Part shown: piece by piece, positions 16,322-20,880 of the stretch | Numbering within the stretch: the stretch's first letter is position 1 | Layout of the letters: every line of letters begins with the position of its first letter | From: a virus | DNA: 21,659 nt | IMG/VR virus record: IMGVR_UViG_3300050010_000077 | Span: 1-21,659 of that record | Strand: one strand, 5' to 3' | The notes under the pieces: model-generated | The model's database searches: none | What the model was told of the DNA's origin: nothing | The model's input: only the letters and a program-made list of their open reading frames with translations | Program-made: the position numbers and the translations under genes

Positions 16322-17758
16322 TTAACTATTCATAGACCTGGCGCGAGCCTCGTCAAAGCCGCCCTGCCTGGTCAGTTTCTCCTTGTAGAGTTGCAACCGG
16401 GTTTTCTTCTCCTCCGGTGCCTTGGACTCTGAGGCATGGTAGGACACAAGCCCCATCCCACCGCAATCGTAGCCGTGGTTGTCTGAGCTCGGAGCATCGC
16501 TCACCTTGTCGCTGTCCATCTCGTCCTCTTGCAGTTGCGGGATGGAGCTGATCAGATAGCGGCAGGTAGAGAATATCTTGACCCGCGGCCCTACTTCAGG
16601 ATCATTTCGCAGGTACTCATGCCATGTGGCTTTCCTGATCTTCCGGTCAGTATCTCCCCTGACGAAACCAGAGAGACCGCCATCCTGGTAATAATCAATC
16701 AGCGTTTTGCCCTCCGTATCCCGATGGTGCTGAGACCAAGCATCATGGCCGGCAACGATGACATCGTGCTTCTCGACAACCTCTTCGTCGCACCGGGAGA
16801 CCTCATCGTATCGGGTGAAGGTAGATAACTTTACTACCCGTCTGGCCTGGTCGGAATAACCCACCCTCTCCTCGTGTTTGTTGCGGGTGAACTCCCGGTA
16901 GATGTAGACCTGGCCATCCTCGTCAACGGTGAACCAGAGCCAGCAGAAGGGATCGGCCATTCCGTTATCAACGGACATCCATTTTCGCCAGTGATCGGGT
17001 ATAACAAATGGCCTGACGACATGGATTGCCGGGTCAAATTCCTCGAAAGCCTGCCCCTCGTAGGAGTCCCAATCGCCGTAGAGAAGGGCTTTCTTCTTGG
17101 CCGGTGGCAGGTTCTCCAGGCGCCGCACATAAGCGGGGTCGTTCTTCATCAGGATCGCGTTGTCATAGACAGTGGCCGGGATGTAGGCAATGACGCTGCC
17201 TGTCTTTTTGTCCCGGTACATGCGCTCTCCTTTGTTGGTAGGGATGACGTAGCGTTTCTTGACCCACTTATGCCCCAATTGCCCTGGATTCGTTGTCGCA
17301 CGGAACCTTGGTGGGTACCCTTTTGGAGAGCGCAGGCAGGAAAGAAGGATTTGAATTTCTTCTTCCGTGTGTTTCGTAAGCTCATCCACGCCGATATAAT
17401 CAATCGAGGAGCCGTCGTAATTGGCAGCATCTTCTTTACAATCGCAGAAACGGAAATATACCTTCGTGCCATTGAGCAACGTGGCGATATGCTTGCTCTC
17501 GTGATACTTGTAAAGCTGAGCAGGTATCTTGGCCTTCCACTCGTTGATCAGGTTGCGCTCAAGTTCGTCGAATGTTTCACGGAAGAGGTAGCACTCTGCC
17601 TTCGGATAGGCCATGGCATACTGAAAACAGTCCATGACAAGCGAACAGGTTTTCGATCCTCCTTTGGCTCCACCAAATAATACCTCATTTGCATCACATT
17701 GGTGGAAGAGGACTTGTTTGGGATTTATGTAGGGGTCGTATGCCAGGGTTAGTTCCAT
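16322..17758 (-). CDS. terL: Terminase large subunit (ATPase/nuclease packaging motor)
   Basis: A 478-aa protein that drives DNA into the prohead through the portal and cuts the concatemer. Residues 29-37 (GGAKGGSKT) are the Walker A loop, 121-126 (YIGVDE) the Walker B strand with catalytic Glu, and 155-159 (TTNPG) the coupling motif. The C-terminal nuclease domain begins near SVDNG (Asp264), with a further candidate acidic site in AGHDAW. The ATG at 17758 follows the stop of a 44-aa gene by 3 nt and has AAAGG upstream. Terminase small and large genes are normally adjacent; here 2.6 kb separates them. Confidence 0.95.
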   Translation of the reverse strand: MELTLAYDPYINPKQVLFHQCDANEVLFGGAKGGSKTCSLVMDCFQYAMAYPKAECYLFRETFDELERNLINEWKAKIPAQLYKYHESKHIATLLNGTKVYFRFCDCKEDAANYDGSSIDYIGVDELTKHTEEEIQILLSCLRSPKGYPPRFRATTNPGQLGHKWVKKRYVIPTNKGERMYRDKKTGSVIAYIPATVYDNAILMKNDPAYVRRLENLPPAKKKALLYGDWDSYEGQAFEEFDPAIHVVRPFVIPDHWRKWMSVDNGMADPFCWLWFTVDEDGQVYIYREFTRNKHEERVGYSDQARRVVKLSTFTRYDEVSRCDEEVVEKHDVIVAGHDAWSQHHRDTEGKTLIDYYQDGGLSGFVRGDTDRKIRKATWHEYLRNDPEVGPRVKIFSTCRYLISSIPQLQEDEMDSDKVSDAPSSDNHGYDCGGMGLVSYHASESKAPEEKKTRLQLYKEKLTRQGGFDEARARSMNS

Positions 17759-17761
17759 GAG

Positions 17762-17896
17762 CTACCTTTTTCCCCTCACAAGTAAACTTGCCAACATGCC
17801 CAAAAACTCTTTGAAATCGGCGTGTTTGGGTGCTCGGTAATTACTATTACACTTGGGGAAAAAGGCTTCCTTGGCGGATTGGCGGGCGGTTTTCAT
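17762..17896 (-). CDS. Tiny protein of unknown function (44 aa) before terL
   Basis: ATG at 17896 overlaps the TGA of the upstream gene fragment (ATGA), with GGGGAG about 7 nt upstream inside that fragment. Stop TAG at 17762-17764, 3 nt before the terL ATG. The product (MKTARQSAKEAFFPKCNSNY... EFLGMLASLLVRGKR) is short, basic and has a weakly hydrophobic C-terminal helix. The overlap with the broken upstream gene suggests it was translated by coupling before the tnpB element arrived. No family recognised. Confidence 0.6.
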   Translation of the reverse strand: MKTARQSAKEAFFPKCNSNYRAPKHADFKEFLGMLASLLVRGKR

Positions 17897-18090
17897 GTCT
17901 TATCTCCCCTCTCCTTGCAGATGAATCTATCCTCATGGCTCAATGTGTGCATAGTGTCCTGTGCAATGGCTGTCATAGCAACTGATTCGTAATAGGAATA
18001 GCAATCATAGATCGTCATCGTGGAACTCTCATTGGGGTGGATAGGCGTGTTCTCTGTCATGCGGAACACGGCTACAAACTGCTTAATCTC
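17893..18090 (-). pseudogene. 3' part of a small gene split by the tnpB element
   Basis: A frame open from the right end of the element (GAG at 18090) to TGA at 17893-17895, 65 residues (EIKQFVAVFRMTENTPIHPN ... RFICKERGDKT). It lacks its own ribosome site at the break; an internal ATG at 18060 could restart. Joined to the fragment 19269-19370 by precise loss of the element, it restores one frame (APETLD|EIKQFVAV) of about 99 codons. The joined protein is a soluble-looking, mixed alpha/beta product of unknown function. Its 3' end overlaps the next gene by ATGA, as normal in this operon. Confidence 0.65.
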
Positions 18091-18230
18091 GTCAACTACC
18101 CTCGACTGAAGTCGAAGGCTTGTAAGAACTAAGAAGCAATTCCTACGTTTGGCTGATTGACAGCAGCCCTACGACCAATGTTGATCGCAGCGATGTAGTC
18201 AGCACGACCAGAGAAGCCGCACTGAGTACA
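18071..18230 (-). ncRNA. Predicted TnpB omega RNA (reRNA) with guide
   Basis: In IS200/IS605 elements the guide RNA of TnpB overlaps the 3' end of tnpB and extends past the right end, where the flanking ~16-20 nt act as the guide. Here the scaffold would end in the hairpin 18099-18118 and TTGAC at 18095-18091, and the guide would be 18090-18071 (minus strand, starting GAGATTAAGC). The 5' limit is approximate. Existence is inferred from the family and the RE hairpin. Confidence 0.5.
18099..18118 (-). repeat. Right-end subterminal palindrome of the tnpB element
   Basis: On the minus strand CC-T-TCGAC, loop TTCA, GTCGA-G-GG: an 8-bp stem with one G-U pair. It matches the left-end hairpin at 15 of 20 positions with the same loop pattern and a compensated stem pair. 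Such hairpins are bound by TnpA and also close the 3' end of the omega RNA. Confidence 0.65.
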
Positions 18231-19205
18231 TTTAAAGGTGGCCTGGTCAGGCCTGTTCTTCTTGTCGATGTTACCGCAGTTTGGACAGGTGCGGCTGGTA
18301 TTACGAGGATCTACTAGTTTGACAGCTACGCCGTCCAGCATGGCCTTGTACTCGATAAACTGCCGTAGTTGATTGAAGCTCCACGAAGAATGTTGCCGTC
18401 TCTGTGCTTTGCGAACCGTTACTCTGTCACGTATTCCTTTTAAATCTTCAAGGGCGATACCGGATAGAGTGCCTTTAGCCTTTGCAACAATCTTCTTGGA
18501 GATACAGTGATTAACGTCTTTGGCAAAGAGTTGTTCCTTATGACGACGCTTATTACGTAGTCTTTTAGCAGACTTGGTGCCTTTAGACTGTAGCTTTCCA
18601 CGCAGTTTAGCATGGCGCTTTCGTAGAGCATTGACCTTGGCACCAGAGAAGGTCTTTCCAGTACTATCGGCAGCAATGTTAACGACGCCCAGGTCAACGC
18701 CAAGCCAGTCGGTATTCTCGTCAGTAGGACGGTCTGGCAGTTCAACACAGACCGCCAGATAGAATTCTCCATCACGGTAGAGCAGGTCAGCCTGGCCACG
18801 GACACGGCGTATATCCAATTCTCGATAGTTCTTAAAGACGAACGGTATTATCTCTCTGCCGTCAAGAGTCAATACTGAGATACAATCTGGGAACTTGAAC
18901 GTCAGGATTCTCTGGTCGTAGACGATGGCTCCGTGAGGTTTGAAAGTGTGTAGGTGCTTCTTTTCAGTCTTGTAAGAATCAGATACTTTGCCAATAACTC
19001 GAACTGCCATCTGAGACGACAGACCAAACTTCTCACGTATTGCATAGTAACAGAGGTGATGCAGTTTGATCTGACCGAAGATGTGCTCTGTAAAGGCTGT
19101 CTCTGAGACGAAGTTACAGGCAGCATTGAATCTCTCCATAGTTACCAAGAGAAATTGAGCTTGCTGTTCAGTTGGCTGTAGTTTGAAAACCTGTGTTAGT
19201 TTCAT
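18129..19205 (-). CDS. tnpB: TnpB RNA-guided endonuclease (IS200/IS605 family)
   Basis: A 358-aa protein, within the usual 350-450 range. The RuvC-like nuclease is complete: RuvC-I D171 in WLGVDLGVVNIA, RuvC-II E253 in ALEDLKGIRDR, and RuvC-III D336 in ADYIAAINIG. The target-nucleic-acid-binding zinc finger uses C307, C310, C326 and C329 (CPNCG ... CTQCG). In RuvC-III the common Asn after D-Y is Ile, a tolerated variation. The N-terminal helical domain (KLQPTEQQAQFLLVTMERFN) is typical. TnpB cuts DNA beside a TAM as directed by the omega RNA and promotes retention of its element. All key residues are present, so it is probably active. A promoter lies just upstream and would give a near-leaderless mRNA. 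Confidence 0.95.
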   Translation of the reverse strand: MKLTQVFKLQPTEQQAQFLLVTMERFNAACNFVSETAFTEHIFGQIKLHHLCYYAIREKFGLSSQMAVRVIGKVSDSYKTEKKHLHTFKPHGAIVYDQRILTFKFPDCISVLTLDGREIIPFVFKNYRELDIRRVRGQADLLYRDGEFYLAVCVELPDRPTDENTDWLGVDLGVVNIAADSTGKTFSGAKVNALRKRHAKLRGKLQSKGTKSAKRLRNKRRHKEQLFAKDVNHCISKKIVAKAKGTLSGIALEDLKGIRDRVTVRKAQRRQHSSWSFNQLRQFIEYKAMLDGVAVKLVDPRNTSRTCPNCGNIDKKNRPDQATFKCTQCGFSGRADYIAAINIGRRAAVNQPNVGIAS

Positions 19206-19211
19206 ATCTGT

Positions 19212-19240
19212 ATTGTATCAGATACTCAATAAATAGTAAA
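19212..19240 (-). promoter_or_regulatory. Promoter of tnpB, probably giving a leaderless mRNA
   Basis: On the minus strand a -35 TTTACT (19240-19235), 17-bp spacer and -10 TACAAT (19217-19212). Only 6 nt separate the -10 box from the tnpB ATG, so transcription should start at or beside the start codon, and no ribosome site is possible. Confidence 0.6.
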
Positions 19241-19370
19241 GGATAATGTGCCTCCTCCCACGATTAAAATCGAGGGTCTCCGGCGCACGGACATGTTCAT
19301 GAAAGTTATCCTCTATCCACTTGATTAAACCTGTCTTGGATTCTGGGGCTATTCGCATGATGTCGGCCAT
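19218..19370 (-). pseudogene. 5' part of the small gene split by the tnpB element
   Basis: ATG at 19370 has a GGAG 6 nt upstream. About 34 native codons (MADIMRIAPESKTGLIKWIE ... RAPETLD) reach the element's left end near 19269. The frame then continues 16 codons through element sequence to a TGA at 19218. The natural-looking part is amphipathic helix followed by a turn. Its continuation is the fragment 17893-18090. An upstream TTG at 19409 would give a longer product, but it would have to read through an A/T-rich leader and its spacing is poor. Function unknown. Confidence 0.6.
19257..19276 (-). repeat. Left-end subterminal palindrome of the tnpB element
   Basis: On the minus strand CCCTCGAT, loop TTTA, ATCGTGGG: 8 positions with one mismatch. 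It is the counterpart of the right-end hairpin and sits about 17 nt beyond the -35 box of tnpB. Depending on the exact left end it is inside the element or spans its boundary. Confidence 0.5.
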
Positions 19371-20367: not shown

Positions 20368-20880
20368 TCACTCCTGCTCTTCCGGGTCGATCTCGATCAG
20401 TGCCGCAGCGTCGACGGCCACCTTGGCGGGGAATTTGAGGTTGACGGTCACGGCGGTCTCAACACGTTGAGCGCCGGCGTCGGTGAACATGCCGCCAGCC
20501 TTGCCAATCAACTCTAGGGCTCGGTTGCAACCGGCGTGATCTTTGGCCTTGCGGGCTGACTTGAGGGTGAGCTTTAGCTCCTTTACCACCCAATCGGCAT
20601 CAGCTTCGAGTCGGGCGGCTCTATTTTTTTGAATTGAGGCGATACGAGCCTGAATTGCGGGCTTTTGTAGGTTTTCTACTGACATATCATGGGCACTTGC
20701 TTCTGAATACCCTGCTTTTTTTGCTGCCTCCGAGCCATTACCGTCATTTGCCACATACTCTTGACAAAAAAGCGCCTGTTTTAAGGTCAACTCTCGGGGT
20801 GCAAGAGCGGCCTTTTCGGGCGCTTTGGTCTTTTTGAGGTTATCAATCCTTTTGTACTTATGTGGTGCTTCGTTGCCCAT
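20368..20880 (-). CDS. terS: Terminase small subunit (Terminase_2 type)
   Basis: A 170-aa protein with an ATG at 20880 and an AGGAG 9 nt upstream. Residues ~30-85 carry the helix-turn-helix hallmark of the family (LTLKQALFCQEYVANDGNGS, EAAKKAGYSEASAHDMS, LQKPAIQARIASIQK), which binds the packaging site and loads the large subunit. A central helical region (VVKELKLTLKSARKAKDHAG) probably oligomerises, and an acidic tail (EIDPEEQE) follows. It is the first gene of the minus-strand operon, behind a good promoter. It is not next to terL but separated by accessory genes. Confidence 0.92.
   Translation of the reverse strand: MGNEAPHKYKRIDNLKKTKAPEKAALAPRELTLKQALFCQEYVANDGNGSEAAKKAGYSEASAHDMSVENLQKPAIQARIASIQKNRAARLEADADWVVKELKLTLKSARKAKDHAGCNRALELIGKAGGMFTDAGAQRVETAVTVNLKFPAKVAVDAAALIEIDPEEQE

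What the first reader, a model, noticed from the sequence alone, without database searches (positions are those of the whole stretch)
17893..19370. A tnpB element splits a small phage gene, and precise excision restores its frame
Upstream of the element, an ATG-led frame with a good ribosome site ends ...APETLD. Downstream of the right end, an open frame starts EIKQFVAV... and ends in an ATGA overlap with the next gene. Joining TCGAT (19269) directly to GAG (18090) restores one reading frame of about 99 codons. This dates the insertion as recent and locates both ends. By family logic the omega-RNA guide (18090-18071) would match the uninterrupted allele, so TnpB could cut related phages lacking the element during co-infection and favour its own spread, in a homing-like way, between terS and terL.
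Basis: partly seen in the sequence, partly recalled or inferred. Interest (0 to 1): 0.8.

Follow-up and report, generated by a model that had tools for sequence, protein, structure and literature searches.

The report
Phage gene split by tnpB element

Summary
Supported, with one correction. An orphan IS200/IS605-type tnpB element (18091-19298, 1208 bp, minus strand) interrupts a small accessory gene between terS and terL on a phage contig. Uninterrupted homologues in two lineages (L003-L008; L111) show that both fragments belong to one gene. The left end is off by 30 bp: TCGAT (19269-19273) lies inside the left-end hairpin. The true insertion point is after TTTCAT (19299-19304). A TCAY motif precedes this hairpin in 31 of 40 related elements (control windows 3-7 of 40), and both homologue lineages lack the ten residues that the TCGAT junction adds. 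Frame is restored either way because 30 is divisible by three; the rebuilt protein has 89 residues, not 99. TnpB looks intact; no TnpA lies on the contig. Cleavage of empty alleles during co-infection is plausible, and a plasmid analogue is published, but no TCAY-flanked guide match was found in IMG/VR and known uninterrupted relatives match the guide poorly. New member of a known kind.

The parts
18091..19298 (-). whole tnpB element, 1208 bp, left end GAACATG..., right end ...GTTGAC
   Evidence: left end from TCAY rule and gap-free homologues; right end from shared TTGAC end and pseudoknot covariation; length matches relatives, 1209-1274 bp
18129..19205 (-). tnpB, 358 aa, RuvC residues D171, E253, D336 and zinc-finger C307/C310/C326/C329 intact
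   Evidence: Pfam OrfB_IS605 and Cas12f1-like_TNB; NCBIfam guided_TnpB 171.9 bits against cut-off 100; invariant columns; alignment to solved Cas12f
19299..19304 (-). TTTCAT, insertion-site and presumed TAM sequence (TCAY core 19299-19302)
   Evidence: TCAY at this distance from the hairpin in 31 of 40 relatives against 3-7 of 40 in control windows
18099..18118 (-). right-end hairpin CCTTCGACTTCAGTCGAGGG
   Evidence: fold z -2.98
18157..18161 (-). GTCAA inside the 3' end of tnpB, upstream arm of an omega-RNA pseudoknot
   Evidence: covaries with the right-end 5-mer: 35 of 42 fully paired, shuffles mean 15.3, maximum 25 in 5000 shuffles
18091..18095 (-). TTGAC, right end of element and 3' arm of the pseudoknot
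18071..18090 (-). flank that would form the omega-RNA guide, GAGATTAAGCAGTTTGTAGC
   Evidence: follows the right end directly; guide role inferred from ISDra2 (PMC8612924)
19299..19370 (-). 5' part of the interrupted gene, 24 codons MADIMRIAPESKTGLIKWIEDNFH
   Evidence: homologous to L003-L008 and L111
17893..18090 (-). 3' part of the interrupted gene, 65 codons EIKQFVAV...GDKT, ATGA overlap with next gene
   Evidence: homologous to L002/L011, L003-L008, L111
19212..19240 (-). possible tnpB promoter TTTACT-17-TACAAT
   Evidence: consensus scan only, not above chance
16322..17758 (-). terL
   Evidence: Pfam Terminase_3/Terminase_6N, phrog_979
20368..20880 (-). terS
   Evidence: Pfam Terminase_2

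Best explanation
An orphan IS200/IS605-type (IS1341-like) tnpB element inserted, by single-strand transposition with a TnpA supplied in trans, 3' of TTTCAT inside a small accessory phage gene between terS and terL. Its 3' transcript would fold into an omega RNA whose guide is the flanking gene sequence, so TnpB would cut the rejoined site TTTCAT|GAGATTAAGCAG... left by excision, or an isogenic empty allele, and repair from an intact copy would restore the element. Shown: one interrupted gene, both ends, intact TnpB domains and catalytic residues, conserved omega-RNA pairing, no TCAY-flanked guide match in the window. Inferred: insertion chemistry, omega-RNA production, cleavage and copying.
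For: Homologues from two lineages read straight through the junction with no gap. TCAY precedes the left hairpin at a near-fixed distance in 31 of 40 related elements against 3-7 of 40 in control windows (binomial 2.6e-21 if loci were independent). Right-end GTTGAC/GCTGAC shared with Parageobacillus, Geobacillus, Methanohalobium and Nitrosophilus elements. Pseudoknot covariation. TnpB families and residues. No TnpA on the contig. Joined frame at offset 0 is 102 codons stop to stop, none at offsets +1 and +2. ISDra2 precedent.
Against: No isogenic empty allele was found. No expression or cleavage data. Frame restoration did not generalise to the other 24 elements tested, as expected if most lie between genes, so it gives no general support. 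The loci share ancestry, so their significance is overstated. A 2-bp ambiguity (GA on both sides) remains, settled only by the TCAY rule.
Confidence: 0.88

Rival explanations
1. One reading: left end after TCGAT (19269), rebuilt protein 99 aa, TAM TCGAT or TTGAT-like.
For: The frame is also open at this junction, and TCGAT resembles TTGAT of ISDra2.
Against: TCGAT is inside the hairpin arm, and the same hairpin positions are variable in relatives. Both homologue lineages need a ten-residue gap exactly there (L111 scores 68.6 bits against 76.6 for the corrected junction). TCAY lies upstream of the hairpin in relatives.
Confidence: 0.04
2. Active phage homing element: TnpB cuts co-infecting phages that carry the empty allele and the element is copied in, spreading like a homing endonuclease gene. 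(An extension of the best explanation, not exclusive of it.)
For: Intact TnpB and conserved omega-RNA pairing. The occupied site lacks TCAY beside the guide match, so it should escape cutting (sequence). TnpB acts as a gene drive among plasmids (PMC11870625). Related tnpB genes occur on many viral contigs.
Against: No TCAY-flanked guide match in IMG/VR: 26 exact 16-mer matches, none after TCAY. Known uninterrupted relatives carry CCAC or TCAA-type flanks and 8 or 11 of 20 mismatches, several in the first nine positions; the L002 fragment mismatches at 7, 9 and 18. No population or co-infection data.
Confidence: 0.3
3. Passive passenger: a dead-end insertion in a dispensable gene, without TnpA, kept by chance.
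For: No TnpA on the contig. The slot between the conserved leader and terL holds a different gene in L010, so the interrupted gene looks dispensable.
Against: TnpB catalytic residues and the omega-RNA pairing are intact, so no decay is visible.
Confidence: 0.4

Closest known systems
IS200/IS605 family, orphan tnpB group (IS1341-type)
   Same: TnpB, subterminal hairpins, insertion 3' of a short motif without target duplication, omega RNA at the right end
   Different: no tnpA on the contig; TCAY motif; carried by a phage inside a gene near terminase
ISDra2 TnpB (PMC8612924)
   Same: expected omega-RNA logic: guide is the right flank, TAM is the left flank
   Different: ISDra2 uses TTGAT and has its own TnpA; sequence similarity weak (8bf8, E 5e-5)
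tnpB elements of Parageobacillus/Geobacillus plasmids (L017, L018)
   Same: 61% TnpB identity, same right end GTAGTTGAC, same left hairpin type; L017 carries TTCAC|GA
   Different: plasmid insertions, other flanks
TnpB gene drive in plasmids (PMC11870625)
   Same: proposed advantage over empty copies in the same cell
   Different: shown for plasmids; here a phage, untested
Phage intron homing endonuclease in PhiPA3 (PMC11620839)
   Different: intron-borne homing endonuclease; this element is not an intron and interrupts the gene

Membership tests
IS200/IS605, orphan tnpB (IS1341-type) | TnpB with RuvC and zinc finger | tested here: met
IS200/IS605, orphan tnpB (IS1341-type) | subterminal hairpins at both ends | tested here: met
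   (left-end fold z only -1.57; supported by relatives)
IS200/IS605, orphan tnpB (IS1341-type) | insertion 3' of a short conserved motif, no target duplication | tested here: met
   TCAY in 31 of 40; homologues need no extra or missing residues at the junction
IS200/IS605, orphan tnpB (IS1341-type) | absence of tnpA in the element | tested here: met
   the contig may be incomplete
OMEGA (TnpB with omega RNA) | omega RNA fold at the right end | tested here: met
   pseudoknot covariation; Rfam has no confident match
OMEGA (TnpB with omega RNA) | RNA-guided cleavage next to the TAM | not testable with these tools
   needs an assay
homing element | cleaves the allele lacking it and is copied in | not testable with these tools
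   no TCAY-flanked target in IMG/VR

The most novel reading that the evidence does not exclude
An orphan TnpB element works as an RNA-guided homing element among phages, cutting co-infecting relatives at the empty gene beside terL and reprogramming itself at each new insertion site.
Probability: 0.25. Interest if true: 0.65.

Novelty: new member of a known kind. Interest (0 to 1): 0.35.

Why it matters
It fixes both ends, the insertion motif and the guide of a phage-borne TnpB clade, giving an exact target for testing whether RNA-guided nucleases act as gene drives in phages. The correction matters: a test with TCGAT as TAM would probably fail.

Tried and rejected
TCGAT as left end: rejected, hairpin arm. 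Isogenic empty allele in IMG/VR: none by degenerate junction pattern, profile or exact guide. Phage records: no match to the small gene. L010 as empty site: has an unrelated gene there. Enrichment near terminase: of 13 contigs with a Terminase_6N match only a few have tnpB within about 3.5 kb (positions compared by eye); no rule claimed. Frame restoration across other elements: no general signal. Rfam: weak HEARO match on the opposite strand, E 0.014, 24.6 bits against a gathering score of 83, taken as chance. Genome collection scan: two distant relatives only. Literature search for a TCAT TAM: off-topic hits. Function of the interrupted gene: no PHROG or NCBIfam match.

Full report
The window is an IMG/VR viral record of 21,659 bp. 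It holds terS (20368-20880), terL (16322-17758), portal and major head genes, all on the minus strand. A 358-aa TnpB is encoded at 18129-19205, minus strand; it matches OrfB_IS605, Cas12f1-like_TNB and NCBIfam guided_TnpB above their cut-offs. Residues D171, E253 and D336 and four zinc-finger cysteines are invariant among eight relatives, and they align with the corresponding motifs of solved Cas12f proteins. No TnpA was found on the contig.

One gene or two? A two-sequence profile added a second lineage, L111. The homologues cover both fragments, so they belong to one gene. The right half is also syntenic in L011: gene end, 44-aa gene, terL.

Where is the left end? Both homologue lineages read WIEDNF followed directly by the counterpart of EIKQF, without the ten residues EHVRAPETLD that a TCGAT|GAG junction would include. 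Removing them gives a gap-free alignment through the junction, and L111 scores 76.6 bits instead of 68.6. This puts the junction at NFH|EIKQF, TTTCAT(19299)|GAG(18090), exactly on codon boundaries.

Independent support comes from related elements. Eighty viral loci and several plasmid loci with TnpB relatives were fetched. A hairpin followed by AGGA precedes tnpB. In 40 distinct loci, TCAC or TCAT occurs in the stretch 14-32 nt before this hairpin in 31, against 3-7 of 40 in five control stretches; where found, it usually ends 16-22 nt before the hairpin. In the window it is TTTCAT ending 22 nt before the hairpin CCCTCGATTTTAATCGTGGG (19257-19276). TCGAT is the arm of that hairpin, and those positions are variable among relatives. 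The loci are related, so the binomial value of 2.6e-21 should not be read literally.

The right end: relatives end in GTAGTTGAC or variants, then diverge. The last five bases pair with a motif upstream, 67-137 nt in all from motif start to element end, inside or just after the tnpB 3' end. When the upstream motif is GTCAA, GTCAT, GTCAG, GTAAA or GTAAT, the end is TTGAC, ATGAC, CTGAC, TTTAC or ATTAC. Full pairing occurs in 35 of 42; shuffled partners gave mean 15.3, maximum 25 in 5000 (relatedness of the sequences is not corrected for). Three of the seven exceptions (L060, L063, L068) were parsed off register by the script and, read by eye in the listings, L060 and L068 pair as GTAAT with ATTAC. 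This is the signature of a structured omega RNA and supports the element's right boundary at 18091.

How it likely works: by analogy with ISDra2 (PMC8612924), TnpB with the right-end RNA would cut the excision joint TTTCAT|GAGATTAAGCAG. The occupied allele is split, with TCAT on one side and the guide match next to TTGAC on the other, so it should not be cut; no TCAY followed by the guide seed occurs in the window. Repair from an intact copy would restore the element. These steps are inferred.

The homing claim: TnpB biases inheritance among plasmids (PMC11870625), so a phage version is reasonable. In IMG/VR the 16-nt guide occurs exactly 26 times, never after TCAY. The uninterrupted relatives L003-L008 have CCAC and 8 mismatches of 20, L111 has CAAT in place of TCAY and 11 mismatches, and L002 has mismatches at guide positions 7, 9 and 18 in the part available. 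Only a near-isogenic empty phage would be a good target, and none was found. Records very near the window may be left out by the search tool, so this absence is weak evidence.

Age: both gene halves are open. The 3' half keeps 41 of 62 codons identical to L002, with most amino-acid changes in one variable stretch. This fits a recent insertion, or continued translation of the 3' fragment from an internal start; it does not date the event. The gene is probably dispensable: L010 shares the leader before the start codon but has an unrelated 99-aa gene between it and terL.

It is a new member of a known kind.

Noticed in passing
L010:4658-5001: The leader and ribosome site before the interrupted gene are conserved, but an unrelated 99-aa gene lies between them and terL: an exchangeable cargo slot.
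   Followed up: partly
L002/L011:1-5: The contig of the closest relative ends about 5 bp beyond the insertion point, as if assembly broke at a variable or repeated site; no TNB-domain match was found elsewhere on that contig.
   Followed up: partly
L138:4240-4288: Right-end-like sequence (hairpin plus GTAGTTGAC) without a tnpB in the fetched stretch; a TNB-domain match lies elsewhere on that 178-kb contig at 18182-18361. Possibly a non-autonomous remnant.
   Followed up: partly
L054 and L056: Two different tnpB copies (53% and 49% identity to the window's) on one viral contig of 31 kb.
   Followed up: no
L031 and L020: tnpB about 0.3 kb from a terminase match (L031), and near an HNH endonuclease and terS on a Bacillus carboniphilus plasmid (L020).
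   Followed up: no
window 18157-18161 with 18091-18095: The omega-RNA pseudoknot arm lies inside the tnpB coding end, so the same bases serve protein and RNA.
   Followed up: partly
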